This document shows, piece after piece, positions 18,271 through 64,000 of a DNA stretch of 64,000 nucleotides. A model generated the notes under the pieces. It was not told the DNA's origin and made no database searches. It saw only the letters and a list, made by a program, of their open reading frames with translations. The stretch is from Agrobacterium vitis. GTDB taxonomy: Bacteria; Pseudomonadota; Alphaproteobacteria; Rhizobiales; Rhizobiaceae. The DNA lies in contig NZ_CP146244.1 of the NCBI RefSeq assembly GCF_037039395.1, positions 248,001 through 312,000 of the forward strand, given 5' to 3'. Numbering within the stretch: the stretch's first letter is position 1; each line of letters opens with the position of its first letter. The position numbers and the translations under genes are program-made.

Positions 18271-18302
18271 GCCCGTCAGAATTCCAGGCAAACTTTAAAC
18301 GA

Positions 18303-18317
18303 GAGATCAGCGATCTC
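18303..18317 (+). repeat. Short hairpin in the M81-MFS intergenic gap
   Basis: GAGATC (18303-18308) and GATCTC (18312-18317) form a perfect 6-bp stem with a 3-base loop. No T-run follows, so it is an mRNA hairpin or operator rather than a terminator. Confidence 0.35.
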
Positions 18318-18379
18318 ATTCCTCAAAGCTGTCTCCGGTAAAGCCAGCGGCAGCTTGTTTTCACAAAGATAGCGCGTTC

Positions 18380-19588
18380 ATGCCGCCAGTTCTCTCCATC
18401 ATTGCCGCTAATCCGGGTATCCGGATTAGCGCGATTGCGATTTTCTTCTTCGGCCTGTCCGGTGCGACCACGGCTCCCTATATGTCGATCATTGGCATAC
18501 ACGAGTTGGGGTTGAGCAATGCGCATTACTCGCTGCTGATTTTCATCGCGTCCTGCGTCAATGTCGCCGCCAGCGTTGCCGTGGGGATCTTGGCCGACAG
18601 GCTTGGACATTTCCGCATGCCGATGGTCATGGTCAGCTTGTTTGGCGTGATCGGTTATGGGGTGGTGTTTCTTGAGCCGAACCAGATCATCTTCGTTGGC
18701 TCCGCGCTGCTATTGCTGCCGGTTTACAACGCCTTGAATTCGCTGATATTTGCCAATGTGCGGGCCGCATCCAAGGATATGCCGGTGCGTGAACTGATTG
18801 CGGTCAATTCCGGCGTGCGGGCGATTATATCGGCCTCCTGGGTCCTGGTGCCCGGTCTGGTGGGCTTCTTTCTGGCCGGTCAGAAAAGCATGCTGCCCGC
18901 CTTTCTGTTTGCCAGCCTCGGCGGACTTGCCTGTTTCATGCTGTTTCTGGTCTGGTTGCCGAAGGCGGAGGCAAGGGCCGAACCCTCGGCAAGCCTGGCG
19001 TTTTTTTCATCCCTGTCTAAAATCGCTTCGCCAGGATTATTGTTGCGGCTTGGCGCCATCGCGCTGATTACGGCCATGCTGCAAATGAACGGCGTCGTGC
19101 TGCCCCTTGTCATGACCGGGCCAGCGCATGGCACGACCGGCGATGTCGGTATTATCGTCGGTATCGTCGCCTTTCTGGAAATCATCTTCATTCTGTTCTG
19201 GGGCTGGGTGGAGCGCAAAACCTCCAGTGTCGCGACGCTTGTTGCCGGTTCGCTGATCTATTGCGTTTATTTGTTGTGCCTCGGTCTCGCCTCGCGGCCA
19301 GAACATGTCTATCTGCTCTCCGGCATTGCCGGTTTCGGCGCGGCGGCGATTATCAGCGTGCCGATTACCTATCTGCAAAACCTGATTGCCGATCGCGCGG
19401 GCCTTGGTAGTTCGCTCATTGCGGTGAATATCTTCTTGAGCGGTGGATTGAACTCGCTGCTCTTTGCATTCGGAACCGGTATCAGCGATTATTCCGGCAC
19501 AGCAATGCTCGGCGCCTTGGCCGGATTCTGCGGGATTTTGCTGTTGCTGATGCTGGAAAAGCCACGGTCCTTCAGGGGTGCTCAATGA
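18380..19588 (+). CDS. MFS transporter (sugar-efflux-like)
   Basis: A 402-residue membrane protein with about 12 hydrophobic segments and the loop 2-3 motif GILADRLGHFRMP typical of the major facilitator superfamily. It resembles the SetA/sugar-efflux branch in its length and its opening segment ISAIAIFFFGLSGATTAPYMS. It sits in the plus operon between the M81 gene and cutC. It could export a by-product or import a related sugar; direction cannot be inferred. Confidence 0.83.
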   Translation: MPPVLSIIAANPGIRISAIAIFFFGLSGATTAPYMSIIGIHELGLSNAHYSLLIFIASCVNVAASVAVGILADRLGHFRMPMVMVSLFGVIGYGVVFLEPNQIIFVGSALLLLPVYNALNSLIFANVRAASKDMPVRELIAVNSGVRAIISASWVLVPGLVGFFLAGQKSMLPAFLFASLGGLACFMLFLVWLPKAEARAEPSASLAFFSSLSKIASPGLLLRLGAIALITAMLQMNGVVLPLVMTGPAHGTTGDVGIIVGIVAFLEIIFILFWGWVERKTSSVATLVAGSLIYCVYLLCLGLASRPEHVYLLSGIAGFGAAAIISVPITYLQNLIADRAGLGSSLIAVNIFLSGGLNSLLFAFGTGISDYSGTAMLGALAGFCGILLLLMLEKPRSFRGAQ

Positions 19589-49392: not shown

Positions 49393-50331
49393 ATGCTCTA
49401 TCCAGTGAGGTTCGTCTATCGTCGGTCCTCGGTTAAATTCGGCAGTACGACCATGCGGTCATTTCAACTGTCAAGGTTGACGAGGCCCTATCTCGGCGAC
49501 AAATACCAGTTTGAAATGGAGGCCCTGCCGAACAAGCGAATACCTGGATTGCAAATGCTCTGGGCGAGCCTTCAGCCCAAAGATGCGATTTATGTGTTTA
49601 CCAAGCGGGCGGCGCTTTCCATTGGCGCATCAGCGCTGGAAGTTTTGCATGGTCGAAGCCGGGGCATCTGTTTCGACTATGTCGATACGCCTTTGGACAA
49701 GATGGTTTTCAATCATGTCGATATGCATCTCGCCAGCTCACATACGGCGCGTGATGCAATGCGCGACAGGCTGAAAAACACGCCTGGGGCAAAAGGGCAG
49801 GTAGGACTGCTGCTGCATGGTGCCGATGAACGCATCTATGCCATGGGCACCCAGCGTCATGCCGACTATCGCGCCGGTTATTTCGGCTTTCTGAAAAATA
49901 CCGTCAGGACGCCACAAATTGAAAAATCAGTCGATTTTCATGATGCGGCTTTCAGCGATTCCATGCGCCAGATCATCGCACGTATGGGGGATTACAGTTT
50001 GCATTACTGCATTCGCGCACCCCAGACCGAGACGGTGGCGAGGTGCTATAAACCCTTCACTAAGGGTGTGATCGCGGCTGCCTGTGGTGCGAATGTGCTG
50101 GTAAATGCCGCTCAGGACGATGCTCTCGCATTTCTGGGTGAGGATTATCCCTATCTCGTCCAAGGAGATGGAGAGGACGAGATTATCGATGTTTTGCAAC
50201 GGGCGCGCAGCACCCATGGAAAAAATGATTGGCTGCGCGCCCGCCATGCCATGGATCATCTGCTCGATCAGGTCAGCCCAAAAGCAATGGCCATGCAGAT
50301 GGATGAAATATTTACGACTTTGCTGAGATAA
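49393..50331 (+). CDS. Hypothetical protein with possible GT-B glycosyltransferase-like fold
   Basis: A 312-residue protein that I do not recognise. The second half has an acceptor-like segment (HLASSHTARDAMRDRL then VGLLLHGADERI) and a C-terminal KPFTKGVIAAACGANVLVNAA...YPYLVQGDGEDEIIDVL. Their layout recalls GT-B glycosyltransferases, where a lysine-bearing donor-site helix is followed by a glycine-rich strand. No transmembrane segment or signal peptide is seen. GTG 49375 is an alternative start. It stands alone between the GntR and PilZ genes. Confidence 0.6.
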   Translation: MLYPVRFVYRRSSVKFGSTTMRSFQLSRLTRPYLGDKYQFEMEALPNKRIPGLQMLWASLQPKDAIYVFTKRAALSIGASALEVLHGRSRGICFDYVDTPLDKMVFNHVDMHLASSHTARDAMRDRLKNTPGAKGQVGLLLHGADERIYAMGTQRHADYRAGYFGFLKNTVRTPQIEKSVDFHDAAFSDSMRQIIARMGDYSLHYCIRAPQTETVARCYKPFTKGVIAAACGANVLVNAAQDDALAFLGEDYPYLVQGDGEDEIIDVLQRARSTHGKNDWLRARHAMDHLLDQVSPKAMAMQMDEIFTTLLR

Positions 50332-50425
50332 TAAAGTGTTGCCAGGCGGGTCGGATGTGATCGGCATTATATGCAATTGTAATAACTGCTGGATGGTCTG
50401 GATCTGAGATCGGCGGGGGTTGGAC

Positions 50426-50668
50426 ATGGAGAATAAGCGTAGAGATCATCGAGGACGGACTTTACAAGCGGCCCGCATCCTCTTGAAAAACGGATTTTCG
50501 ACCTTTAGTTGCACCGTCAAGAATATTTCCTCCAGCGGCGCGAAGCTGGCTGGCGATAATTTTGTCAATGTTCCCGATGAATTCGATTTGCTGCTGGATG
50601 GCGGACGCAAGGTCCACTGTATCGTCCGTTGGCGGAAAGTCACCGAAATCGGCGTGGAATTCGCCTGA
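50426..50668 (+). CDS. PilZ-domain cyclic-di-GMP-binding protein
   Basis: An 80-residue single PilZ domain. The RxxxR motif (RRDHR, residues about 5-9) and the D/NxSxxG motif (NISSSGAKL, near residue 35) together form the c-di-GMP binding site, so it can probably bind the messenger. Target is unknown. It lies about 7 kb from the GGDEF-EAL protein in the same window. Confidence 0.88.
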   Translation: MENKRRDHRGRTLQAARILLKNGFSTFSCTVKNISSSGAKLAGDNFVNVPDEFDLLLDGGRKVHCIVRWRKVTEIGVEFA

Positions 50669-50716
50669 CCGACATTCAGAATGCGTCCTACAGATGGAAA
50701 AGTTCGATAGCAGTTC

Positions 50717-51265
50717 ATGATTGAGTTCAACAGCAGTGCTGTCGATATTGCCCTCGAGCTGATCGGGGCTGAACTTTTCGTGGAGGGTGTCGGCGGCATG
50801 ATCGTCGAAACCGAGGCCTATGAACGTGACGATCCGGCATCCCATAGCTTCCGGGGGCCCACACCGCGCAATAATGCGATGTTTGGTCCAGCCGGACGTG
50901 TCTATGTCTACCGTTCCTACGGAATTCACTGGTGTTTGAATATCGTTTGCCAGCCCGGCAGTGCGGTTTTGATCCGAGCGCTCGCACCAAGCCAGGGTTT
51001 GGATGTCATGCAGATGCGGCGTGGCAACGTGGCACCGCGTTTTCTATGCGCCGGGCCCGGCCGTCTGGCCCAGGCATTGGGCATCACCGTTCAACATGAT
51101 GGCTTACCTCTAGCCTTACCGCCATTTCAGCTCGTGCCTGCCAAAATCCGTCCAGATGTGACGATCGGTCCTCGCATTGGCATTACCAAAGCTGTCGATC
51201 ACCCCTGGCGCTTCGGTTTGGCTGGGTCTAAATTTCTCAGCAAGCCTTTCCGGACTGCCCTCTAG
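50717..51265 (+). CDS. 3-methyladenine DNA glycosylase (AAG/MPG family)
   Basis: A 182-residue glycosylase of the mammalian-type AAG fold. The catalytic glutamate lies in IVETEAYERDDPASHS, followed by FGPAGRVYVYRSYGIHWCLN, VLIRAL and the C-terminal GPRIGITKA. It excises alkylated purines during base-excision repair. It has 48 bases separating it from the PilZ gene and is probably transcribed with it or alone. Confidence 0.94.
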   Translation: MIEFNSSAVDIALELIGAELFVEGVGGMIVETEAYERDDPASHSFRGPTPRNNAMFGPAGRVYVYRSYGIHWCLNIVCQPGSAVLIRALAPSQGLDVMQMRRGNVAPRFLCAGPGRLAQALGITVQHDGLPLALPPFQLVPAKIRPDVTIGPRIGITKAVDHPWRFGLAGSKFLSKPFRTAL

Positions 51266-51329
51266 CGCCATATCCGACAGACGGATTAATATCTCGCGTT
51301 GATGAGCATGCAAACGACTGGATAAGCTG

Positions 51330-51986
51330 ATGGTGCTGGTACTGGATGCAGTGAAAAAAACATACCGCACATCGGAAGGTCCTTTGGAGGTTCTCAAAGG
51401 TGTCAGCCTGACACTGGCCGCAGGGCGAACCATGGCATTGACCGGGGAATCCGGCAGCGGCAAAAGTACATTGCTTCATCTGGCGGGCGGGCTGGACAGC
51501 GCCGATGCCGGGAAGCTCTGCGTGGATGGTGAAGATATCGATACGCTTGACGATAAAGGTCGGGCCCGGTTGCGTCGTGGCACAGTTGGGTTGATTTTTC
51601 AGCAGTTCAACTTGATCCCTTCGCTGGATGTACGAGCCAATCTGGCCTTTCATGCCCGGCTGGGTGAGCGTTACGATGGCCAATGGCAGACGGAATTGAC
51701 GGAACGTTTGGGGCTTTCCGCGCTTTTGGCGCGCTATCCCGAGCAGCTCTCCGGCGGCCAGCAACAGCGTGTCGCCATCGGTCGGACACTTGCGGTTCGG
51801 CCAAAGCTGGTTCTGGCTGACGAGCCGACGGGCAATCTCGATGAAGAGACAGGCAATGCGGTTATGGCCTTGATGCTATCTCTGGTACGGGAGACGGGGG
51901 CAGCCTTGTTGATGGTGACACATTCCCCCCGGTTGGCGTCCATGCTGGATGAAAACTTGCATTTGCGTGCCGGGCGGGTGGCCTGA
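51330..51986 (+). CDS. ABC transporter ATP-binding protein (LolD/MacB-like)
   Basis: A 218-residue ATPase with Walker A GESGSGKST, signature LSGGQQQRVAIGRTL and Walker B LVLADEPTGNLD. It is of the short MacB/LolD class that works with FtsX-type permeases. Its stop overlaps the permease ATG (TGATG at 51984-51988). It is the first gene of a three-gene unit with the permease and the AttH-like lipocalin. Confidence 0.93.
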   Translation: MVLVLDAVKKTYRTSEGPLEVLKGVSLTLAAGRTMALTGESGSGKSTLLHLAGGLDSADAGKLCVDGEDIDTLDDKGRARLRRGTVGLIFQQFNLIPSLDVRANLAFHARLGERYDGQWQTELTERLGLSALLARYPEQLSGGQQQRVAIGRTLAVRPKLVLADEPTGNLDEETGNAVMALMLSLVRETGAALLMVTHSPRLASMLDENLHLRAGRVA

Positions 51987-54394
51987 TGCTGCGCACGGCT
52001 TTTCTGGCTTTGCTGTCGCATTGGCGGCGCAAGCCGCTTCAATTGGCGATGCTGCTTCTCGGTCTGTCGCTGGCGACAGCACTTTGGTCGGGGGTGCAGG
52101 CGATCAATGCCGAGGCGCGAGCCTCTTATGCGCGGGCCGCCACCATGCTGGGGCAAAACCGCCTGTCAGACATCAAGAGCAAGGATGGCAAGCCCATCTC
52201 CATCTCGACCTATGTCACGCTGCGGCGAGCGGGGCTGCTGGTTTCCCCGGTTGTTGAGGGGGAAATGCGACTTGGCACGTTTCGCCTGCGGCTGATCGGC
52301 ATAGATCCCCTGACGATCCCGTCCGTGGCCCAGCCTGTCGATTTGCGCGGTGATGGCAATATCAATCGTTTCCTTTTGCCGCCGGGGCAGATCGCGGTTT
52401 CGCAAGCCACCGCAGATGCCCTTCAGGGGCAATCGCTGCCGCCACTTAATATCGTCAAGGATCTGCCTTTCGGGACTGGCTTTACCGATATTGGCCGGGC
52501 GCAAGCCTTATTGGCACAGCGGGATGGGTTGACCCGGCTGATCGTCTCGCCTGAACAGCCGATTTCACAACCGCAACTGGCGGCATTGGCGCCTGATCTG
52601 CGCCTGAAATCCCCTGATGGCGAAGGGGATCTTGCCCGGTTGACGGACAGTTTTCATCTCAACCTGACGGCCTTCGGACTGCTGTCCTTCGTTGTCGGCC
52701 TGTTCATCGTCTATGCGGCGGTGCGGCTGGCTTTCGAGCAGAGACGGCCCACCTTTCGCACGCTTCGCTCTCTCGGTCTCTCGGCCAGCGCCTTGATGCT
52801 CCTGCTTTTCCTGGAGCTGCTGGTCTTTGCATTGGCTGCGGGCGTTGCGGGCGTGGCGCTTGGCTATGTCGTTGCCTCTGTCTTGCTGCCGGATGTGGCG
52901 CTGACCCTCAGGGGCCTTTATGGCGCCGATGTTCCCGGCACGCTGGCTTTTCGGCCCCAATGGTGGGCGACAGGGATCGGTATTGCGGTTGTCGGCACGC
53001 TAGCGTCCGCCGGGCAAAGTCTCTGGCAAGTCTGGCGCATGCCTCTGCTGGCCCCGGCCCAGCCACGCGCCTGGGCTTTAGCCTCGGAACGCGCCTGGTT
53101 TCTCCAGGCACTGGCTTCGTCAGTGCTATTTGCGGCAACGCTGATTTTGATGAAATTCGGCAATGGCCTGGTGGCTGGTTTTGCCACGTTGGGAGCGCTC
53201 TTGCTGGCCTCGGCGTTGGCCTTGCCGGTCGTTTTGGTGCCGGTGCTGCGGCTGATGCAGTTCCTGGCAAGGCGACCTGTTTGGCAATGGTTCTGGGCCG
53301 ATACCCGACAGCAATTGCCCAGCCTGTCCCTGGCTTTGATGGCGCTTCTTCTGGCGCTATCGGCTAATGTCGGGGTGGGAACCATGGTGTCCAGCTTTCG
53401 CCTGACCTTTGTCGGCTGGCTGGATCAAAGATTGGCCGCTGAGCTATACGTGACGGCGCGCAACGATGGCGAGGCCGAGCGTTTGCAGACCTGGCTTGCC
53501 CCTCGGGTGAAGGCTGTGCTGCCGATCTGGAATGCGCAAGGAGAGGTCGGCGGCAAAACCGTGGTTATTCATGGCGTGGTCGATGATGCGACCTACCGTG
53601 ATCATTGGCCGATGATTGCCGCCACGCCGGATGTGTGGGACAGGCTGGCGCGGGGTGAGGGGGCGTTGATCAATGAACAGATGATGCGCCACGAGGCCTT
53701 GGCGGTGGGTGACAAGATCACGCTGCCCGGTGGCTGGAAGACCCGTATTCTCGGCGTCTATTCCGATTACGGCAATCCCAATGAGGATGTGATTGTCGCC
53801 CAATCGGAATTGGTCAGCCGCTTTTCCGATCTCTCGCGCCTCCGGTTTGGACTGCGGATACGGCCTGAGCAGACCGGCGCTCTGCGTGAGGCTTTGATGA
53901 CCGAATTCGGCTTGCCGCCCGATAACGTCGTGGATCAGGCGGTGATCAAGGCGCGATCACTGGCGATTTTCGAAAAGACCTTCGCCGTTACAGCCGCTCT
54001 GAATGTATTGACGCTGGGGGTGGCTGGGCTTGCGATGTTTGCTAGCCTTATGACGCTGTCAGGCATGCGGTTGCCGCAGATCGCTCCCGTCTGGGCAATG
54101 GGTTTGACCCGTCGCGCGATAACCGGGCTGGAGCTTGCCCGCACTCTTATCCTTGCGGGTTTTACACTCGTTGCCGCGCTGCCTGTAGGGCTTGGGCTGG
54201 CCTGGGTTCTGTTAGCGGTGGTCAATGTCGAGGCTTTTGGTTGGCGCTTGCCAATGCATGTCTTTCCTGTCCAGTGGCTGTGGTTGGGAGGGTTTGCACT
54301 GTTGGCTTCGTTGCTCTCGGCCCTGGTACCACTTGCTGGTATTGCCCGATTGAAGCCATCGGATTTATTGAAAGTCTTTGCCAATGAGCGTTAA
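51986..54394 (+). CDS. FtsX-like ABC permease (large, AttG type)
   Basis: An 802-residue membrane protein with an N-terminal helix, a large periplasmic MacB-PCD-like region, and two FtsX domains with clustered hydrophobic segments (about residues 225-420 and 690-795). It forms an extruding or mechanotransmitting complex with the upstream ATPase. Its end overlaps the start of the lipocalin gene by 11 bases. In related loci the set ATPase/permease/AttH is linked to handling of lipids or envelope molecules. Confidence 0.9.
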   Translation: MLRTAFLALLSHWRRKPLQLAMLLLGLSLATALWSGVQAINAEARASYARAATMLGQNRLSDIKSKDGKPISISTYVTLRRAGLLVSPVVEGEMRLGTFRLRLIGIDPLTIPSVAQPVDLRGDGNINRFLLPPGQIAVSQATADALQGQSLPPLNIVKDLPFGTGFTDIGRAQALLAQRDGLTRLIVSPEQPISQPQLAALAPDLRLKSPDGEGDLARLTDSFHLNLTAFGLLSFVVGLFIVYAAVRLAFEQRRPTFRTLRSLGLSASALMLLLFLELLVFALAAGVAGVALGYVVASVLLPDVALTLRGLYGADVPGTLAFRPQWWATGIGIAVVGTLASAGQSLWQVWRMPLLAPAQPRAWALASERAWFLQALASSVLFAATLILMKFGNGLVAGFATLGALLLASALALPVVLVPVLRLMQFLARRPVWQWFWADTRQQLPSLSLALMALLLALSANVGVGTMVSSFRLTFVGWLDQRLAAELYVTARNDGEAERLQTWLAPRVKAVLPIWNAQGEVGGKTVVIHGVVDDATYRDHWPMIAATPDVWDRLARGEGALINEQMMRHEALAVGDKITLPGGWKTRILGVYSDYGNPNEDVIVAQSELVSRFSDLSRLRFGLRIRPEQTGALREALMTEFGLPPDNVVDQAVIKARSLAIFEKTFAVTAALNVLTLGVAGLAMFASLMTLSGMRLPQIAPVWAMGLTRRAITGLELARTLILAGFTLVAALPVGLGLAWVLLAVVNVEAFGWRLPMHVFPVQWLWLGGFALLASLLSALVPLAGIARLKPSDLLKVFANER

Positions 54395-55463
54395 CATCCG
54401 TCGGTTCATGGTTTTCGCTCTTGTGCTGCTGCTTGGCGGTAATCCGGTTTTTGCCCAGGGCTTTGCCGGTCTTGGTGCCAAGGCTGGCGACGGCTTCGCG
54501 TTGCCGCAGCCAGGCCAGCCGCTTGCCTTTCCAATGGATCATGGTCCGCACCCCAATTACCGGATCGAGTGGTGGTATGTGACGGCCAATCTGACCGGGC
54601 CGGACGGGCGCGATTACGGGATCCAATGGACGCTGTTTCGTTCGGCATTGAAACCGGGCGAGGCCGAGGGCTGGAACAGCCCACAAATCTGGATGGGCCA
54701 TGCGGCTTTGACCACGGCGGACCATCATTATGCTGCGGAAAAGTTTGCGCGTGGAGGAATAGGCCAGGCGGGCGTGGCGCTTGCGCCGTTTTCCGCCTGG
54801 ATCGACGATTGGTCGCTCACGGCAGGGCCTCAGGCCGAAAACACTGGCGATGCCTTGTCCTCCTTGACCATGAAGGCCAAAGGCGTCGATTTTTCCTACG
54901 ATCTATCGCTACATGCCACCGGTCCGCTGGTGGCACAGGGCGATCATGGTTACTCGGTGAAATCTTCGGAAGGGCAGGCGAGCTATTATTATTCCCAACC
55001 CTTCTATGCGGTGAATGGTGTCTTGAACCTGCCGAATGGCCCTGTCCCGGTAACCGGTAAGGCCTGGCTGGACCGGGAATGGTCTTCTCAACCGCTCTCC
55101 GCCGACCAAAAAGGCTGGGATTGGTTCTCTCTTCACTTTGAGAATGGCGCAAAACTGATGGGTTATCATCTGCGTGGCAAGGGTGACGATTATACCGTCT
55201 CTACCTGGATAACGCCGGAAGGTGTGCCGGAGCCGATGCGGCCCGGCGCACTCAAGCTGACGGTGTTAAAGCAAATGCAGGTTGCGGGTCGCACTATGCC
55301 AGTGGAGTGGCAATTGGAATTGCCTGAAAAAGCCATGTCGATCCGTACAACGCCCGTGAATGCGCAAAGCTGGATGCCGCTGGCCTTTCCCTATTGGGAG
55401 GGTCCGATCCGCTTTTCGGGTAGTCATGCTGGTGCGGGCTATCTTGAAATGACCGGGTATTGA
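54384..55463 (+). CDS. AttH/CrtC-like lipocalin family protein
   Basis: A 359-residue secreted protein with a signal peptide (FMVFALVLLLGGNPVFA, cleavage near residue 25) and the tandem-lipocalin fold of AttH and carotenoid hydratase (CrtC). Motifs include HPNYRIEWWYVTANL, GRDYGIQWTLFRS and GKAWLDREWSSQPL. It is probably periplasmic or surface-exposed and served by the upstream ABC/FtsX pair. The ATG at 54384 overlaps the permease end. Attachment or virulence roles claimed for the Agrobacterium att genes do not follow from sequence. Confidence 0.88.
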   Translation: MSVNIRRFMVFALVLLLGGNPVFAQGFAGLGAKAGDGFALPQPGQPLAFPMDHGPHPNYRIEWWYVTANLTGPDGRDYGIQWTLFRSALKPGEAEGWNSPQIWMGHAALTTADHHYAAEKFARGGIGQAGVALAPFSAWIDDWSLTAGPQAENTGDALSSLTMKAKGVDFSYDLSLHATGPLVAQGDHGYSVKSSEGQASYYYSQPFYAVNGVLNLPNGPVPVTGKAWLDREWSSQPLSADQKGWDWFSLHFENGAKLMGYHLRGKGDDYTVSTWITPEGVPEPMRPGALKLTVLKQMQVAGRTMPVEWQLELPEKAMSIRTTPVNAQSWMPLAFPYWEGPIRFSGSHAGAGYLEMTGY

Positions 55464-55613
55464 ACCCAGACAGCCGTTTGTTCATATGGCATGCGCTTTG
55501 CTTTACTGCATTTACAGTAGGTCGAGCATCCGGCCCATGGTAATCATGGGGTCGGAATGGCATGGACAGGCATATCGGGCATTTTCCCGCTTCGTCTGGC
55601 AAGGAGAACGGTG

Positions 55614-57011
55614 ATGGCATCTTATTCGATCATCCTTGGGCGGCAACGCCATGTATTCGACGATCTGAAAAGCCTGATGGCCTGCGCTTCGCCGCCAAAG
55701 TCCGGGGATCAATTGGCAGGGATTGCCGCAAGCAGCAATGAACGCCGGGTCGCGGCCCGCTATGTGCTTGCCGATCTTCCCTTGAAGACCTTTCTTCAGG
55801 ACATGCTGATTCCCTATGAGACCGACGAGGTTACCCGGCTGATCGTCGATAGCCATGACGTTGCGGCGTTTGCGCTGGTCTCTCATATGACTGTTGGTCA
55901 ATTTCGTGACTGGCTGCTGTCTTATGAGGCAACAAGCGAGGTTTTGGCGGCGCTTGCCCCCGGATTGACACCGGAAATGGTGGCGGCTGTTTCCAAGTTG
56001 ATGCGTAATCACGACCTGATCACGGTTGCGGCGAAATGCAGCGTTATCACCGCGTTTCGCTCGACAATTGGGCTTTCGGGCCGGCTTTCCAGCCGGTTGC
56101 AGCCAAATCATCCGACCGACGATCCGGAGGGGGTGGCTGGCTCGACCTTGGACGGCCTGCTTTATGGCGTAGGGGATGCGGTGATCGGCATCAATCCGGC
56201 CAGTGATAATCTCGAAGCCTGCATAAGGTTGATGCATCTGTTCGACAAACTCAGGGACCGTTTCGAAATACCGACACAGTCCTGTGTCCTGACCCATGTG
56301 ACAACCTCGATCCAGGCGATCGAGGCAGGCGCGCCGCTTGATCTCGTCTTTCAATCGGTGGCGGGGACACAGGCTGCCAATCACGGGTTTGGCGTCGATC
56401 TCGCGGTTTTACGCGAGGGGCGCGAGGCGGCGCTATCATTGAAACGCGGCACCGTTGGCGACAATGTCATGTATCTTGAGACCGGGCAGGGCAGCGCGTT
56501 GTCGGCTGATGCCCATCATGGCGTCGATGAACAGACGCTTGAGGTGCGGGCCTATGCCGTGGCGCGGGAGGTCAAACCGCTGCTGGTCAATACGGTGGTC
56601 GGCTTCATCGGGCCGGAATATCTTTACGATGCCAAGCAGATTATCCGCGCCGGACTGGAAGATCATTTCTGTGGCAAATTGCTGGGCGTGCCGATGGGCG
56701 TCGATGTCTGTTATACCAACCATGCCGAAGCCGATCAGGATGACATGGACAACCTGATGGTGCTCCTGACCGTCGCAGGCGTGAATTTCCTGATTGCCGT
56801 GCCGGGTGCAGACGACGTCATGCTCAATTATCAAAGCCTATCCTATCATGATATTGTCGGTCTTCGTCACCAGTTCAACCGTCCACCCGCACCGGAGTTC
56901 GAAGCGTGGCTGAAGCGGATGGGGATGATCGATCGGTCCGGTCGATTGGCGCCATTGCCCCATTCCAACGCCTTTTCCCGCAACCTTCTGTCTTACAAGG
57001 CATCGGCATGA
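55614..57011 (+). CDS. eutB: Ethanolamine ammonia-lyase large subunit
   Basis: A 465-residue EutB with family motifs such as GVAGSTLDGLLYGVGDAVIGINPA, GTQAANHGFGVD, MYLETGQGSALSADAHHGVDEQT and GVDVCYTNHAEADQDDM. It is the catalytic subunit of the adenosylcobalamin-dependent lyase that turns ethanolamine into acetaldehyde and ammonia. AAGGAG lies seven bases before the ATG. No cobalamin riboswitch is seen in the 150-base gap upstream. Its stop overlaps eutC by four bases. Confidence 0.95.
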   Translation: MASYSIILGRQRHVFDDLKSLMACASPPKSGDQLAGIAASSNERRVAARYVLADLPLKTFLQDMLIPYETDEVTRLIVDSHDVAAFALVSHMTVGQFRDWLLSYEATSEVLAALAPGLTPEMVAAVSKLMRNHDLITVAAKCSVITAFRSTIGLSGRLSSRLQPNHPTDDPEGVAGSTLDGLLYGVGDAVIGINPASDNLEACIRLMHLFDKLRDRFEIPTQSCVLTHVTTSIQAIEAGAPLDLVFQSVAGTQAANHGFGVDLAVLREGREAALSLKRGTVGDNVMYLETGQGSALSADAHHGVDEQTLEVRAYAVAREVKPLLVNTVVGFIGPEYLYDAKQIIRAGLEDHFCGKLLGVPMGVDVCYTNHAEADQDDMDNLMVLLTVAGVNFLIAVPGADDVMLNYQSLSYHDIVGLRHQFNRPPAPEFEAWLKRMGMIDRSGRLAPLPHSNAFSRNLLSYKASA

Positions 57012-57763
57012 GCAATTCCGTCGATTTTGACCCCTTTGCAAGGTTCAGAAGCGCCACTCGGGCGCGCATCGGACTTGGCCGGGCAGGCGATGCGATGCCG
57101 ACACAGGCCGTACTGGAATTTCAACTGGCCCATGCCAGGGCGCGTGATGCCGTCCACGGGGAAGTGGATTTCGAAAAACTCGCCACGGCGCTTGCCCCCA
57201 TTGAAACTGTGCTGGTCCACTCACTGGCAAAAGATCGAGCGACCTACCTGACCCGCCCCGACCTTGGGCGCATGCCGGATAGCCATGACCTTCCGGCACC
57301 GGGCAAGACCTACGAAATCGCCTTCATCATTGCCGATGGCCTTTCGGCAGCGGCGGTGGAGCGCCATGCCGTTCCGGTCTACCAGGCCACGGTGCGCCGG
57401 CTCGGCGGTTTCTCAGTTGCCCCGGTCATCCTTGGAAAACAAGCGCGTGTCGCTTTTGGCGATGAAGCCGCGGCGGCTTTCGGAGCGCAAGTGGCTATTG
57501 TCCTGATTGGAGAGCGGCCCGGCCTTAGCGTTCCCGATAGTCTTGGCGCCTATATCACCTTTGCACCGCGTAAAGGACGGCGCGATAGTGAGCGCAACTG
57601 CATTTCCAATATTCATGACGACGGATTGTCTTACGAATCGGCGGCGGAAAAGATTTCCTGGCTGGTGAAGGAAGCCTTACGGTTGAAACTCTCAGGTGTC
57701 GACCTGAAGGAAAATGCGGCGGATGGGCTCTCGCTCTCACACAACATGAAATCGTCGACCTAA
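57008..57763 (+). CDS. eutC: Ethanolamine ammonia-lyase small subunit
   Basis: A 251-residue EutC with SATRARIGLGRAGDAMPTQAVLEFQLAHARARDAVH and the C-terminal GLSYESAAEKISWLVKEALRLKLSGVDLK. It helps bind adenosylcobalamin in the EutBC complex. It is coupled to eutB by an ATGA overlap. No reactivase (EutA), transporter or microcompartment shell gene is found in the window. Confidence 0.95.
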   Translation: MSNSVDFDPFARFRSATRARIGLGRAGDAMPTQAVLEFQLAHARARDAVHGEVDFEKLATALAPIETVLVHSLAKDRATYLTRPDLGRMPDSHDLPAPGKTYEIAFIIADGLSAAAVERHAVPVYQATVRRLGGFSVAPVILGKQARVAFGDEAAAAFGAQVAIVLIGERPGLSVPDSLGAYITFAPRKGRRDSERNCISNIHDDGLSYESAAEKISWLVKEALRLKLSGVDLKENAADGLSLSHNMKSST

Positions 57764-58055
57764 GTAACTGTTAAAAAATAACTTTAATCTCTGAACGATT
57801 TGGTCGGCTAAGCATTTCTTCAGCTTCCGGCACCGACTTGACGCGACTCGCTGTATGCGGCACATTTACGATGAAACGTTCGATATGTCTGCTATTGCCG
57901 TAACAAGCTGTGTATGCTGTTAGTTTTCCGCTGGTGCGTATATCATTCCAGAAGAGAATCAGTCAGTTTGCGCGGTAACGAAAGTTTAGGCGTATGCAAG
58001 TGTGGAATGGTCAAACCGTTCGAAGCTAAGGCAGGCGCTTTATCGGGAGATGATC

Positions 58056-59313
58056 ATGGCGGTTGCGTCCAGCACGGCGACTGAACAACAGGAGACGAAT
58101 TTGCGCCCCGCCGATGAGACCATTGCCGAAGACGCGCGTGCCCTTTCAGCCCAGACTGAAGGCCATGCGGGAGCGGCTGTTTGCGCCAGCGTCGCGCAAA
58201 ACCCTGCGGACTTTCACGTCCGGCGAAGCTGCGCGTCTGGTGGGCGTCTCGGACGGCTATTTGCGGCAATTGTCGCTTGCCGGTGAAGGCCCTGCGCCCG
58301 TCGTTGGGGCAGGTGGGCGCCGCTACTATTCGCTCTCTGATATTGACGCGCTGCGCCATTACCTGGCCGAGCAGGCGATGATAAAAGGCAATGTTTCCAA
58401 GGCCCGTTCCTATGTGAAATGGCGTGACGCCGAACGTGGCGAGCATTTGCAGATCATTTCCGTGACAAATTTCAAGGGCGGTTCCGGTAAAACCACCTCG
58501 GCCGTTCATCTTGCGCAATATCTGGCCATGACCGGACACCGGGTTCTGGCAGTCGATCTCGATCCGCAGGCGTCGCTGTCTGCATTGTTTGGTTATCAGC
58601 CGGAACTCGATCTGGTCGGCAATGACACGATTTATGGCGCCATCCGCTATGACGATGAAGTCAGGCCGCTGCGGGAGATCATTCGCAAGACCTATTTTCA
58701 CAATCTCGACCTGTTGCCCGGAAACCTGGAATTGCAGGAATTTGAGCATGTGACGCCGCGTGCCTTGGCGGAACGAAAGACGGGCGATGCCAAGAGCCTG
58801 TTTTTCGCCCGAGTGCAGAATGCCTTGCACAGCGTGGCGGATGATTATGATGTCGTCGTCATCGACTGCCCGCCGCAGCTTGGATATCTGACATTGTCGG
58901 CGCTTTGCGCATCGACATCGGTGATTGTCACTGTGCATCCGCAGATGCTGGATGTGGCGTCCATGAGCCAGTTTCTGTTCATGACATCGGATCTACTCGG
59001 TGTCGTGCGCGAAGCAGGTGGCACACTGAATTTCGACTTTCTACGCTATCTCGTCACCCGGTTTGAGCCGAATGATGGTCCTCAGGCGCAAATTGTCGGT
59101 TTTCTGCGGTCGTTGTTCGGGGAACGGGTGTTGACCTCGCCGATGGTCAAATCGACGGCAATTTCCGATGCCGGATTGACCAAACAGACGCTTTACGAAG
59201 TTGGCCGCGAAAATTTCAGCCGTGGCACGTACGACCGGGCGATTGAAGCGCTGGAATCGGTAAATGCCGAAATCGAACAGTTGATCCACACGGCGTGGGG
59301 ACGCAAAGAATGA
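58056..59313 (+). CDS. repA: Plasmid partition protein RepA (ParA-type) with apparent N-terminal frameshift
   Basis: The body is a typical RepA: N-terminal helix-turn-helix (TSGEAARLVGVSDGYLRQLSLAGEGP), ParA-type Walker A KGGSGKTTSAVHLAQYL, VIDCPPQLG, and C-terminal ASMSQFLFMTSD. It segregates the replicon with RepB and represses the operon. The expected N-terminus, MAVASSTATEQQE...DARALSAQ, reads in frame from 58056 (GGGAG seven bases upstream) up to about 58154. Then one extra base near 58155 shifts it into the frame of LKAMRERLFAPASRK. Without correction, translation would have to begin near 58165 or from an unrelated upstream frame. The HTH and ATPase remain intact. Confidence 0.85.
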
Positions 59314-60392
59314 TTGGAAAAAACCGAAAAAGCGAGTTGCGCGCGCTGTTTTCCGATCCAGGATCGGGGGCACGTCCAGATACTGCGGAACCCTCTGTTC
59401 CGCAACCAACGGTGACCGGCGAACCGCGTAGCGCAGACACTATTGAAGAACAGAGCCCCGCAGCGCCAGTGGCGCGCGCAGCCTCAGGGGCGATAAAGGC
59501 AATGGGATTGACCTTGTCCTCTATCACCAGAGAGGCGGAAGAAGCGCGTGCTTTGCGCCAGGCGATTGACGAGGGCGAAAGGGTCATTTCCCTTGCTACG
59601 GATAAGATCGATGCGTCCTTCGTTTCAGATCGCTTGAGTGATGAGGAAAGAGACGATCCAGATTTCGTCGCGCTGGTTGCCAGCATGCGCGAGAGTGGCC
59701 AGCAGGTTCCGATCCTCGTGCGTCGGCATCCCGTTGACGCCGACCGCTATCAGGTTGCCTATGGTCACCGGCGTTTAAGTGCTGCCAAGCGCCTCGGCAT
59801 TGCCGTCAAGGCGCTTATCCGGCCCTTGAGCGACGACGAGCTTGTGCTGGCTCAAGGCAAGGAAAATGCCGAGCGACGCAATCTCACCTTCATCGAGCGT
59901 GCCTTGTTTGCCAAGGCATTGGCCGATCGTGGTTTTGATCGAAAGGTCATCGGCGAGGCGCTTTCGGTGCAAAAAAGCGAGCTGTCGCGGCTTATCCAGG
60001 TGGCAGAGAGTGTCCCTGAGCGCTTTGCTCGCGCCGTTGGCCCAGCTCCGAAGGCAGGCCGCGAGAGGTGGATGGCACTTGGCCAATTGCTCTCGAGCGA
60101 GCAGGGGCAGGTGAAAGCGGCTGGATTGGTGTCTACAGACGGATTTCGGATCGCAGCCACCGATGAACGGTTTCAAAAACTATTCGATACGCTGTCCGGC
60201 AAGGCGCCTGTGGAGCGTCCGGAACCAGAGGACATCAGGGGCCCAGATGGCCGTGTCTTCGCCCGTATCGGACGGCAGGGGCGGCGGCTGAAGATTGAAT
60301 TTCTGGCGGAAGCCAATCCGGGGTTTGTCGATCAGTTCGAAACGCGTCTGGCGGCTGCTTATGCGGCCTATTTGGACGGCGAACACGACTGA
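59310..60392 (+). CDS. repB: Plasmid partition protein RepB (ParB-type)
   Basis: A 360-residue RepB with a ParB/Srx-like domain (QVPILVRRHPVDADRYQVAYGHRRLSAAKRLG), a KorB/ParB helix-turn-helix (KVIGEALSVQKSELSRLIQVAESVP) and the C-terminal RepB region. It binds parS and works with RepA in segregation. ATG 59310 overlaps the repA stop (ATGA at 59310-59313). The reading frame is complete, unlike the neighbouring repA and repC. Confidence 0.95.
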   Translation: MIGKNRKSELRALFSDPGSGARPDTAEPSVPQPTVTGEPRSADTIEEQSPAAPVARAASGAIKAMGLTLSSITREAEEARALRQAIDEGERVISLATDKIDASFVSDRLSDEERDDPDFVALVASMRESGQQVPILVRRHPVDADRYQVAYGHRRLSAAKRLGIAVKALIRPLSDDELVLAQGKENAERRNLTFIERALFAKALADRGFDRKVIGEALSVQKSELSRLIQVAESVPERFARAVGPAPKAGRERWMALGQLLSSEQGQVKAAGLVSTDGFRIAATDERFQKLFDTLSGKAPVERPEPEDIRGPDGRVFARIGRQGRRLKIEFLAEANPGFVDQFETRLAAAYAAYLDGEHD

Positions 60393-60872
60393 AATCGGTT
60401 TGCATCCGGCTTTTGCTGGGTGCTGTAGACCTGCATTTTGCAGGATTATTGCATGCCACTTAAATCCCAAGGGATTTTAAGAGGACACTACGCAGAGGTT
60501 ACAACGGGTTATGGCGCGTTGTGTTTTATCGAACGCAAGCGCTGTAAAGTGCAACGAGAAGGAAGCAATACGAGACAAGAAAAAAGGCCCCAAAACGTCA
60601 CCATTTCGGAAGCCCTCTTCTATGTAGCAATGCAAGAGAATCACTTCTGGCCATAAAAGTCAAGACATGACCGCATATTCGTGGGTCATGATGTATCTTT
60701 TTGCGTCTTGATTTTGCGGCGCTGGCAGCAGCGCCAAGCCATAATGGTGCTTAGACAAAATGATGGAATGGTATCGACCACAATGCGGGCGATGCTTGCG
60801 GCTTTGTGCATTTTATCAAATGCATATTACAGCGCCGTGCGTTTTAGAAAACGCACAAAGGAGGCTGTAACA

Positions 60873-60933
60873 CTTTAATCTGCGGCATAATTTTCTCCTT
60901 CAATCGATTCCGATTGAAGGAATTATGCAGTAG
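60873..60933. repeat. Palindromic repeat unit, copy A
   Basis: The unit opens CTTTAATCTGC and ends AATTATGCAGTAG. Its core is the perfect 10-bp stem CCTTCAATCG (60897-60906) with CGATTGAAGG (60911-60920) around ATTC, flanked by outer arms CTGC..ATAATT and AATTATGCAG. It is 71 bases upstream of the start of copy B. Confidence 0.65.
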
Positions 60934-60943
60934 GTGCCGTAAG

Positions 60944-61005
60944 CTTTAGATCTGCCGCATAGTTTGCTCCTTACGTCGGGTCCGATTTAGGGAGTTATGC
61001 AATAG
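60944..61005. repeat. Palindromic repeat unit, copy B
   Basis: This copy follows copy A in the same orientation (CTTTAGATCTGC...TTATGCAATAG). The loop-side stem is degenerate (CTCCTTACGTCGG against CCGATTTAGGGAG), but the outer elements and the spacing are kept. Base changes concentrate in the stem, so the shared feature may be the symmetric layout rather than the exact sequence. Confidence 0.6.
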
Positions 61006-61417
61006 ATCGACCGTTGCGTAATATGCTGAATTCCTCGGATTTCAGATAGCAAACCTGTGGATTCTATAAGAGATAAGATTGGCCTTACATGGCGCCTTAT
61101 CGCGCATGAAACGGTCAATTTTGCTTTACGCCTCGTTCGTTGTCGATACTTTGCTGAGTTCACTGGTCTTGGATCATTCAGATACCAAGCAATGAATTCA
61201 TGCGCCGACGGTATCCTTGCGATTTTATCAATCGGATGCCGTATCACGTCAACCTGCTGCGAAATAGTCTCCTTGCTTGTGTTTCAAGTTAGGAATTGCG
61301 TAGTCGATTGATGGATTGCCGAAGAAGGGAATGGACTTAAAACTATTCTATTCCGGAAATCGTTAACCCGCCCTGTCGGGTTGATTGAGTGTCAGTGGTT
61401 GTCATTTGGGCCTGCTT

Positions 61418-61436
61418 GTCTCCTTGTAAAGGGGAC
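61418..61436 (+). promoter_or_regulatory. Hairpin masking the repC ribosome-binding site (ctRNA control region)
   Basis: GTCTCCTT (61418-61425) pairs with AAGGGGAC (61429-61436) with one G-U pair and a 3-base loop. The AAGGGG half is the repC ribosome-binding site, so folding hides it. In repABC replicons this is the region controlled by a small antisense RNA. I infer that an antisense RNA is transcribed leftward across 61365-61440, but I cannot place its promoter. Confidence 0.6.
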
Positions 61437-61444
61437 GCGACATT

Positions 61445-62663
61445 ATGGAACGAGCTGCAACAACGCCCTTTGGCGGCGGACGGATGTCCGGTCGCGTCCT
61501 GGCGCGACAAGCACGCATTGGCGAACGCCAAGCGGAACTGCGGCAAACCGAAGGCACAAACTCTTCTGGTCGCGCTGACAAATGGCAATTGCTTCGCGCC
61601 TTAACGGAGGCGCGTGCTGTCTATGGTCTGGGTGACAGGACGATTTGCCTGCTTGAAGCGCTTGTCAGCTTCACCACCGAGCGCGAACTGGATGGCCGGG
61701 AACCCGTTATCGTCTTTCCATCCAACCGGGAATTGGCTTTTCGAGCAAGAGGAATGGCGCCAGCGACCATACGCAGGCACTTGGCCTACCTTGTCGAGGC
61801 AGGCATGATCTTTCGGCGTGATAGCGCCAATGGCAAGCGCTATTGCCGCAGAGACGAAACTGGAGAAATCGAGGATGCATTCGGCTTCGATCTAGCACCG
61901 TTTGTGCTGAAAGCAGAAGAAATCTACAGCGCAGCCGAAAGCGCCCGTGCTGAAGCCAAGCAGTTCCGTGCCTTGCGAGGAGAAGTCACTGTTTTATCCC
62001 GCGACATTTCCAAGATAATCACTCTCGCGCTTGAAGAGGGGCGAGCAGGGGACTGGGAAAGCTATTTGCTTCGCTATCAGACTTTTTGCAAAACACGCAC
62101 AAGAATGAAATTCAGCAGCGATATGCAAACATTGGCGCAAGAAGCTGCGTGAACTGCTGGCACAGGTGGAAAACGATTATCTTTCAAGCCTTTCTGAAGA
62201 GGAAATGAGCGGCAATGAGCATCAAAATGAGCGGCATCAACAGAATTCAAAATCAGAACTACAATTTGATAAAAACGGCAATGATCATAAAACAGAGGAG
62301 CCGGCATCACCTGCCCTCGATCAGCGCAGATTGGCTGTAAGCCTGAAAAGGTTGAAAACGCTTTGCCCGCAAATCAACGACTACGCTAAAGATGGGATTT
62401 CCGAATGGAATGACTTGATCAGGTCAGCTGACACTGTGCGGACGATGCTGGGCATCTCCCCTGATGCATGGTTGAAGGCGAAACAAGCGATGGGTGAACA
62501 GGCCGCTGCAATTACCGTCGCTGTTATGCTTGAGCGAGCCGAAGCAATTCGTTCCGCAGGTGGTTATCTTCGGACATTGACCGAAAAGGCTGAGCAAGGG
62601 CAGTTCAGCGTTTACCCCATGCTTCAAGCGCTCGAGAAAAACCTGCCACGGAGCAAATCGTAA
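61445..62663 (+). pseudogene. repC: Replication initiator RepC with apparent frameshift near codon 233
   Basis: The N-terminal part (61445-62152) is clear RepC: TTPFGGGRM, KWQLLRALTEARAVYGL, IVFPSNRELAFRARGMAPATIRRHLAYLVEAGMI and NGKRYCRRDETGEIEDAFGFDLAPF. It ends at TGA 62150-62152. The missing C-terminal part continues in the +1 frame (62142 onward as KLRELLAQVEND, then 62166-62663 with GISPDAWLKAKQAMG and AGGYLRTLTEKAEQG), so one base appears lost or gained near 62141. RepC also carries the replication origin in its AT-rich middle, seen here around 62200-62300. Alternatives are a sequencing error or two collaborating half-proteins. Confidence 0.85.
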
Positions 62664-62943
62664 AGCTTGATGGCGTTGAAGAAATCTGAGTTGGCTGATG
62701 CGATAGGAACTTTGTTTACGTCGCATCCTTTGAAGATCAGGTTTCTTCCGCTTCTCCACTGACCCTGGAATTTTGCCAGATCGAGGCGGAACAAATATCA
62801 CTGCAATGCGTTTGTCTATGACGCGAAACCTTATGGTCCTGAAGCGTGAGTAGACAACTCTGACCGTGAAAACGGCCGTAACGATGCAGCAGGCAATTGG
62901 AGCGTAATTCGGGTACGCGATCATCCGGCTGGGATAAAGAAAT
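62664..62943. other. Intergenic gap after repC
   Basis: I see no gene, terminator or clear repeat in these 280 bases. A TAA at 62935-62937 closes the downstream reading frame, so the phospholipase gene cannot start earlier than 62944. Confidence 0.6.
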
Positions 62944-64000
62944 ATGCAGGGTTTCGAGAAGGCCAGCAGCCATCACCGCAATGGATCGGATCAGGTGATC
63001 AGAGTAGGTCATAATGCCTGGAAGACGGGTGTTGCATCTAAAGCGGGATTTCTGATCGATGGTGCGCAATATTTTCGTGCGCTTGCGGATGCTCTGTCCC
63101 GTGCTCAGGAACAGATATTCATCATCGGTTGGGACTTTAACCCTGACATCCAGCTTATACCGGAAGATCAAGCTTCACCCACATTAGGTGAGTTCCTCAT
63201 TTCGCTTGTCGACAACAATAGCCGTCTTTCCATTCACATTCTTGTCTGGGCGATGGGCCCTATCTATTCTGGAAAATCCCTGCGCATGCTCGGGAAAACC
63301 GAACTTAAAGCGCATCCGAGGATAGATTTGCGGCTCGATACGCGGCATGCCGTTCGAGGTTCTCATCATCAGAAAATGGTGGTTATCGATGATGCGCTGG
63401 CGTTTATTGGCGGCATCGATCTTACGGCCAAGCGGTGGGATACGCCCGAGCACCGGGCCGATCAACCTTTACGTCGCACGCCTAAAGGCGAACGGTATGA
63501 GCCGGTTCACGATGTTCAGATGGCTGTTGACGGCGAAGCAGCCGAAGTCGCGGCTGAAATCGCCAGGCGCCGGTGGTGGCAGGCGACGGGTGAAGATCTG
63601 GTGCGTCCACGCTGCTATTTTCATTCTTTTCCGCCGGCTGCACGTTATGTCTTGAGAAATTGTGACATCGCTTTTGCGCGGACCGAACCGGCAATTCGTA
63701 GAAGCACATCCGTTCGGGAGACGCTCCAACTCACCCTTGATTGCCTGTCACGGGCAGAGAGGCTTATCTATATAGAAAGCCAATATTTTGCCTCGAAAGA
63801 TGTCGCCGATCTTTTGGCGGCTCGATTGAGTGAGCCGGATGGCCCTGAGGTTGTGTTGATTTCGACGCTAAATTCGCATGGATTTCTTGAAAGAAAAGTA
63901 CTGGGCGAAAATCGTGATAGAATGATCCGCAAGCTTAGACAGGCCGATCGGTTTGGTCGGTTTCGTGCTTTCTATCCAGTTGTCCCGGATGAGAGCCGCG
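62944..64000 (+). CDS. Phospholipase D-family protein (3' end outside window)
   Basis: The frame is open from ATG 62944 to the end of the window without a stop, about 352 codons, so it is partial. It starts MQGFEKASSHHRNGSDQV and has the first HKD motif HHQKMVVIDDALAFIGGIDL near residue 140, the core of PLD-superfamily phospholipases, cardiolipin synthases and related nucleases. A second HKD motif is expected beyond the right edge. The visible domain order (N-terminal PLDc, then a charged linker) resembles bacterial PLDs acting on phospholipids. The ribosome-binding site is weak. Confidence 0.85.
   Translation, partial: MQGFEKASSHHRNGSDQVIRVGHNAWKTGVASKAGFLIDGAQYFRALADALSRAQEQIFIIGWDFNPDIQLIPEDQASPTLGEFLISLVDNNSRLSIHILVWAMGPIYSGKSLRMLGKTELKAHPRIDLRLDTRHAVRGSHHQKMVVIDDALAFIGGIDLTAKRWDTPEHRADQPLRRTPKGERYEPVHDVQMAVDGEAAEVAAEIARRRWWQATGEDLVRPRCYFHSFPPAARYVLRNCDIAFARTEPAIRRSTSVRETLQLTLDCLSRAERLIYIESQYFASKDVADLLAARLSEPDGPEVVLISTLNSHGFLERKVLGENRDRMIRKLRQADRFGRFRAFYPVVPDESR

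What the first reader, a model, noticed from the sequence alone, without database searches (positions are those of the whole stretch)
61445..62663. repC appears frameshifted between its two halves
The repC N-terminal frame stops at 62152. The C-terminal RepC sequence continues in the +1 frame from 62142 with no break in homology (KLRELLAQVEND). RepC is normally essential for replicon replication. Either the cassette is dying, the replicon uses another origin, the two halves work as separate proteins, or there is a sequencing error.
Basis: partly seen in the sequence, partly recalled or inferred. Interest (0 to 1): 0.72.

Follow-up and report, generated by a model that had tools for sequence, protein, structure and literature searches.

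The report
Chromid replication gene split, probably misread
The gene that starts replication of a grapevine bacterium's second chromosome looks cut in two, but the cut is most probably a single-letter error of this genome assembly rather than a dying or newly organised replicon.

Summary
The frame break is in the sequence. RepC homology runs in one frame from 61445 to about 62143 and goes on in the next frame to 62660. The seven closest relatives found (95-99% identical) have one open frame. The window lies on a 1.23-Mb chromid of the Allorhizobium (Agrobacterium) vitis group, whose only RepC is this one.

The best reading is sequence error. On this contig 16 of 691 conserved genes show strict frame breaks (14 clearly inside genes); the relative shows 4 of 689 in the reverse test, none clear on inspection. 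In a 200-kb sample of the main chromosome there is no such excess, but the one gene hit there is the genome's only ysxC/engB, held to be essential. repA beyond its break has no amino-acid change in 381 codons. Published repC frameshift mutants do not replicate.

Against it: both breaks fall in one cassette, and more distant RepC genes of the genus are sometimes broken too. A second initiator (RPA) sits on the same contig, so a real loss rescued by another origin is unlikely but not excluded.

The parts
58050..58154 (+). repA, first 35 codons, in one frame
   Evidence: tblastn of a relative's RepA: residues 1-35 at 100%
58153..59313 (+). repA, remainder, in another frame (ParA-type ATPase)
   Evidence: residues 35-420 at 99.7%; TIGR03453 partition_RepA on ORF 58063-59313
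59310..60392 (+). repB, intact
   Evidence: PF07506 and ParB_N; no gap columns against two relatives
60393..61444 (+). repB-repC intergenic region (1,052 bp)
   Evidence: ORF limits; 97.0% identical to G060, 82.1% to G056; no Rfam match at gathering threshold
61445..62152 (+). repC, N-terminal piece (PF03428)
62166..62663 (+). repC, C-terminal piece (PF11800) in the next frame; homology begins about 62142
62225..62284 (+). most A+T-rich 60-bp block of repC (67% A+T), candidate oriV by analogy with p42d
   Evidence: A+T profile in steps of 60; p42d oriV from PMC3155836, passages read

Best explanation
The split is most likely a residual one-base error of the assembly. In the living strain repC would then be an ordinary intact RepC initiator of the A. 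vitis-group chromid, working in cis on an A+T-rich origin inside its own gene, with repA and repB as partition genes. Shown: the break, its absence in the seven nearest relatives, the excess of such breaks on this contig, the split of a single-copy gene held to be essential, and the conserved protein sequence beyond the breaks. Inferred: that the strain's DNA lacks the break.
For: Seven of seven close homologues (95-99% identity) have one open frame. Strict frame breaks on this contig: 16 of 691 conserved genes; the reverse test lists 4 of 689 in the relative G056, of which 3 are mirror images of breaks in this genome by coordinates and 1 is an out-of-frame extension upstream of the relative's gene, by my reading. 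Of the 16, 14 lie inside genes and 2 in probable leaders (from the proteins, by eye). With the one case on the main chromosome the 17 breaks are 10 one-base insertions, 3 one-base deletions and 4 of other sizes; the one-base insertions all lie in runs of one or two bases. Premature stops show no excess (3 of 691 against 5 of 689). The main-chromosome case is ysxC/engB (TIGR03598), found in the genome only as two pieces; it is reported essential in S. aureus and indispensable in B. subtilis (PMC2811118, passages read). Between two 99.2% identical 36-kb segments of this genome, 1 of 30 genes is frame-broken although both halves are 100% identical. repA beyond its break: dN 0 in 381 codons, dS 0.14 and 0.21. 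RepC frameshift mutants do not replicate and RepC acts in cis (PMC3155836, passages read). repABC of chromosome 2 is essential in three A. tumefaciens natural isolates, two of them with fused chromosomes (PMC12153318, passages read).
Against: Both breaks that split conserved genes in the window lie in one 4.6-kb cassette; given the repC break, the chance that one of the other 15 hits repA or repB is about 4% (my arithmetic). In the main-chromosome sample there is no excess: 1 of 135 here against 2 of 136 in the relative, of which one is a clear interior break and one a probable leader. Broken or truncated RepC genes of other types (44-53% identity) occur in the genus: G006:C14 and G040:C2 have the two domains in different frames, and the two G015 copies show no C-terminal domain match on their contigs. 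The 2-20-base breaks may be real mutations, so the strain may have true pseudogenes. No reads, coverage or sequencing method were available.
Confidence: 0.78

Rival explanations
1. The breaks in repA and repC are real and recent. The chromid is kept by another origin: the RPA-type initiator on the 36-kb segment of the same contig, or fusion with the main chromosome through the near-identical segment there.
For: RPA (PF10134) at C4:18133-18822, open frame 388 aa, and an equal-scoring copy on C2; the segment C4:1-36464 matches C2 at 99.16%; two breaks in one cassette; broken RepC genes of other types occur in the genus. In V. cholerae, fusion is reported when an origin or centromere is mutated (stated in PMC12153318, passage read).
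Against: Homology to C2 runs across the end-start junction of C4, as expected of a separate closed circle. G061 carries an RPA gene on the same contig as its chromid-type RepC, which is intact, and G056 carries RPA on other contigs with RepC intact. RepA protein sequence is still fully conserved beyond the break. KOPS polarity turns next to repABC, not near the RPA gene. Fused A. tumefaciens still needs repABC (PMC12153318).
Confidence: 0.1
2. The break is a real mutation in the sequenced stock or in part of its cells, very recent, with no long-term meaning.
For: Low dN beyond the breaks fits a very recent event; four of 17 breaks are of sizes unlike a simple one-base error.
Against: It would need two hits in repABC and one in the only ysxC at once.
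Confidence: 0.08
3. The two halves are made as separate proteins that work together, or ribosomes change frame at the join.
For: Each half keeps nearly a whole Pfam domain; a possible start at 62205 follows a purine-rich stretch (by eye). G006:C14 and G040:C2 hold RepC domains in different frames, though the latter has a stop inside.
Against: The seven closest relatives lack the split; p42d repC frameshifts at nt 277 and 948 abolish replication (PMC3155836); no known frameshift signal seen by eye; repA would need the same trick.
Confidence: 0.03

Closest known systems
RepABC replicons of Rhizobiales, in particular chromosome 2 of the Allorhizobium vitis group
   Same: repA-repB-repC order and strand, PF03428 and PF11800 domains, 95-99% identity of the N-terminal piece to seven relatives
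   Different: repA and repC are each interrupted by a one-base length difference here and not in the relatives compared
Engineered repC frameshift mutants of R. etli p42d (PMC3155836, passages read)
   Same: reading frame of repC broken inside the gene
   Different: those do not replicate; here a 1.23-Mb replicon is present in the assembly, which argues that the break is not in the cell
Gene-fragmenting errors of long-read assemblies (PMC12007338, abstract and section list read)
   Same: scattered frame breaks that split genes intact in relatives
   Different: the sequencing method of this assembly is unknown, and the breaks are mostly one-base insertions outside long homopolymers

Membership tests
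RepABC cassette / RepC initiator | RepC N-terminal domain PF03428 | tested here: met
   E 1e-56, residues 29-194 of the first piece
RepABC cassette / RepC initiator | RepC C-terminal domain PF11800 | tested here: met
   E 3e-37 on the second piece
RepABC cassette / RepC initiator | one continuous repC frame of about 400 codons | tested here: not met
   two frames in this assembly; one open frame in seven of seven close relatives
RepABC cassette / RepC initiator | repA and repB upstream on the same strand | tested here: met
   58050-59313 and 59310-60392; the repA frame is itself broken
RepABC cassette / RepC initiator | A+T-rich origin inside repC | tested here: inconclusive
   60-bp block at 67% A+T; origin function not tested
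RepABC cassette / RepC initiator | antisense RNA between repB and repC | tested here: inconclusive
   0 Rfam matches at gathering threshold in 50000-64000
Assembly error | excess of frame breaks over a relative on the same contig, outside this cassette | tested here: met
   14 further strict breaks on C4 (16 of 691 with repA and repC) against 4 of 689 listed in G056, none clear on inspection
Assembly error | the same excess on the main chromosome | tested here: not met
   1 of 135 against 2 of 136 in the relative; the one here is the single-copy ysxC
Assembly error | break absent from the raw reads | not testable with these tools
   no reads held
Replicon kept by another initiator | second initiator gene on the same replicon | tested here: met
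   RPA at C4:18133-18822; no Rep_3 match in the genome, DnaA on C2 only, no second RepC on C4
Replicon kept by another initiator | replication starts at that second site | tested here: inconclusive
   KOPS polarity turns near repABC; GC skew shows no two-arm pattern; such marks record the long-term, not the present, origin

The most novel reading that the evidence does not exclude
repA and repC of this chromid are really broken and the 1.23-Mb chromid now starts replication from the RPA initiator of the mobile-element-like segment inserted in it: a natural case of integrative suppression, in which an integrated element's origin replaces the host replicon's own.
Probability: 0.05. Interest if true: 0.75.

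Novelty: not a real feature. Interest (0 to 1): 0.15.

Why it matters
If real, a chromid without its own initiator would show that such replicons can swap origins. As it most likely stands, the case is a warning: an isolated frame break in a 'complete' genome should be weighed against the rate of such breaks in the same assembly before a replicon is called dying. The gene-by-gene comparison used here is cheap and can be run on any assembly that has a close relative.

Tried and rejected
Considered and rejected: a second RepC or a Rep_3 initiator on C4 (none found); C4 as an open contig (57 bases near its end and its first 280 bases are consecutive in homology to one place on C2); a split shared by close relatives (none of the seven nearest). 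Raw indel counts from whole-contig DNA alignment were not used, being full of alignment artefacts. A first, loose gene-level count (28 frameshifts of 694 in this genome, 23 of 698 in the relative) was replaced by the strict one, which drops pairs whose halves are under 88% identity or under 25 residues. The plasmid-collection search found no record that covers 80% of the cassette (best row 26% covered at 78.5%; records very near this genome may be left out there).

Full report
WHERE IT IS. The window is contig C4, 248001-312000, of a 6.04-Mb, five-contig genome. Named relatives of the RepC piece are Agrobacterium (Allorhizobium) vitis CG118 at 99%, NCPPB 3554 at 97% and CG78 'chromosome 2' at 96%. 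C4 is therefore taken to be the second chromosome (chromid) of this grapevine-associated group; the literature describes a circular second chromosome, classed as a chromid, in All. vitis S4 (PMC9219206, passages read). C4 is 1,229,846 bp. A stretch of 57 bases that ends six bases before its end, and its first 280 bases, are consecutive in homology (82% and 80%) to one place on C2, as expected if C4 closes as a circle.

THE OBSERVATION. repC starts at 61445 and its frame stops at 62152. PF03428 lies on the first piece, PF11800 on the second. A relative's single RepC matches residues 1-234 in one frame and the rest in the next. The seven closest homologues (95-99% identity) are listed with open frames of 410 codons. 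The break is a one-base length difference. Which base is not stated here. repA is broken likewise after codon 35, near 58155; repB is intact. The rest of repA reads on in another frame that is open upstream to 58063.

BROKEN REPC ELSEWHERE. Among more distant RepC genes of the genus, one search lists some with short open frames: G006:C14 (259), G015:C14 and C15 (252 each), G049:C222 (322), G040:C2 (174), G047:C11 and C18 (165, 156), G037:C376 (130). A search of these six genomes for the C-terminal domain finds it in other frames next to the first piece in G006:C14 and G040:C2 (the latter with a stop inside), and nowhere on G015:C14 or C15. G049:C222 and G047:C11 lie at contig ends. Five of the six genomes have at least one RepC open over 400 codons; G040, a draft of 86% completeness, has none. 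Broken RepC genes thus exist, mostly beside intact ones. I did not read their sequences.

IS ANOTHER INITIATOR THERE? RepC occurs four times in this genome, on C1, C3, C5 (open frames of 406, 415, 441) and on C4. DnaA is on C2 only and Rep_3 gives no match. RPA, PF10134, occurs three times, once on C4 at 18133-18822. That copy lies in a 36,464-bp segment that is 99.16% identical to a stretch of C2 and reads like an integrated mobile element (inference: ParB-like and DUF932-like genes and a serine recombinase nearby in the ORF lists, named from recall). Two of seven relatives carry RPA, G061 on the contig of its chromid-type RepC; both have that RepC intact.

IS THE ASSEMBLY PRONE TO SUCH BREAKS? 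I took genes intact in G056 and asked whether both halves occur in this genome in two frames at 88% identity or more and 25 residues or more. On C4 (compared with bases 1-1,025,000 of the 1,134,217-bp G056 contig) 16 of 691 genes are broken; in 200 kb round dnaA on C2, 1 of 135. The reverse test lists 4 of 689 and 2 of 136 in G056. Of the four, three are mirror images of breaks in this genome and one is an out-of-frame extension upstream of the relative's gene; of the two, one is a clear interior break in a methyltransferase-like gene and one a probable leader (by my reading). Held to the same standard, two of the 16 on C4 (near 647630 and 903322) lie before probable signal peptides, in leaders (by eye). 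That leaves 14 against 0 on the chromid (p about 1e-4 as a coin toss, my arithmetic) and 1 against 1 on the chromosome sample. Of the 17 breaks in this genome 10 are one-base insertions, 3 one-base deletions, 4 other sizes; every one-base insertion at a break lies in a run of one or two bases. Premature stops do not show an excess (3 of 691 against 5 of 689). Between the two copies of the 36-kb segment, 1 of 30 genes is broken in the C2 copy and 0 of 30 in the C4 copy; the broken gene is 100% identical on both sides.

THE TELLING CASE. The one broken gene in the dnaA region is ysxC/engB (TIGR03598). A search of the whole genome finds it only as two pieces in two frames at C2:1228401-1228980; the five other matches are weak (at most 49.5 bits, cut-off 124.45) and taken to be other GTPases. 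The gene is reported indispensable in B. subtilis and essential in S. [quoted passage not shown] A cell with that gene split is not expected to live, so at least this break is probably in the assembly, not in the cell. The break in repC is of the same class.

SELECTION. Beyond its break repA has no amino-acid difference from two relatives in 381 codons, with dS 0.14 and 0.21. repC beyond its break has dN 0.022 and dS 0.073 against G060, and dN 0.040 and dS 0.152 against G056, much as G060 against G056 (0.037, 0.130). The cassette was under selection until recently; a long-dead cassette is excluded, a very recent loss is not.

WHAT REPC NEEDS. In p42d, frameshifts at nt 277 and 948 and small end deletions abolish replication, RepC acts in cis, and the origin lies in or near an A+T-rich region of repC (PMC3155836, passages read). 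In A. tumefaciens isolates with fused chromosomes both origins fire and repABC stays essential (PMC12153318, passages read). A separate chromid with a split repC would thus be hard to explain.

REPLICATION MARKS. The raw cumulative G-C sum falls slightly over the first 72 kb of C4 (to -996), the stretch that holds the 36-kb segment and the RPA gene, and then climbs to the end (17,037). Third-position skew with gene strand taken out is positive in 14 of 14 bins that hold tested genes; the 2 bins without tested genes include the RPA region. There is no two-arm pattern. KOPS (GGGNAGGG) are 113 on the + strand and 35 on the - strand; 13 of the 35 lie in 316.6-340.3 kb, so polarity turns between 304 and 317 kb and between 340 and 343 kb. 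repABC lies at 306.0-310.7 kb. This fits one-way replication from repABC. Marker-frequency data show unidirectional replication of chromosome 2 in the related A. ampelinum S4 (PMC13342612, passages read). The marks give no sign of an origin at the RPA gene but cannot show where replication starts today.

VERDICT. The frame break is in the sequence and absent from the seven nearest relatives. Sequence error is the best reading (0.78). What stands against it is the double hit in one cassette, about a 4% coincidence given 16 breaks, the lack of excess on the chromosome sample, and the existence of other broken RepC genes in the genus. Reads decide.

Noticed in passing
window 58050-59313: repA carries its own one-base frame break after codon 35, not mentioned in the finding.
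   Followed up: yes
G000 contig C4 (whole), especially 304-343 kb (window 56 kb to beyond its end): From about 72 kb on the GC skew is positive all the way, and KOPS point mostly one way except for a cluster at 316.6-340.3 kb; this fits unidirectional replication, as published for A. ampelinum S4 chromosome 2 (PMC13342612).
   Followed up: partly
C4:342158 and 342191 (L069, outside the window); G056:C2:243111 and 243144: Two identical 16-bp palindromes 33 bp apart, present also in G056, lie at the point where KOPS diverge, about 32 kb from repABC; they resemble repABC parS sites (motif from recall) and may be a displaced centromere.
   Followed up: partly
C4:1-36464 and C2:1356127-1392589: A 36-kb segment with an RPA replication initiator stands on both chromosomes at 99.16% identity, a possible substrate for chromosome fusion.
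   Followed up: partly
C2:1228401-1228980 (L205, L206): The only ysxC/engB of the genome is split in two frames, a useful marker of assembly quality.
   Followed up: yes
G006:C14:2232-3462, G040:C2:3582-4219, G015:C14 and C15: RepC genes of other types that look split or without a C-terminal domain.
   Followed up: partly
G061:C3: A relative's contig holds two RepC genes and an RPA gene, which suggests that its chromid is fused with a plasmid of the type seen as C3 here.
   Followed up: no
window 60393-61444: The repB-repC gap is 1,052 bp, longer than I recall for most repABC cassettes, and has no Rfam match.
   Followed up: no
window 62944-64000: A phospholipase D-type gene follows repC on the same strand (PF00614).
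   Followed up: no
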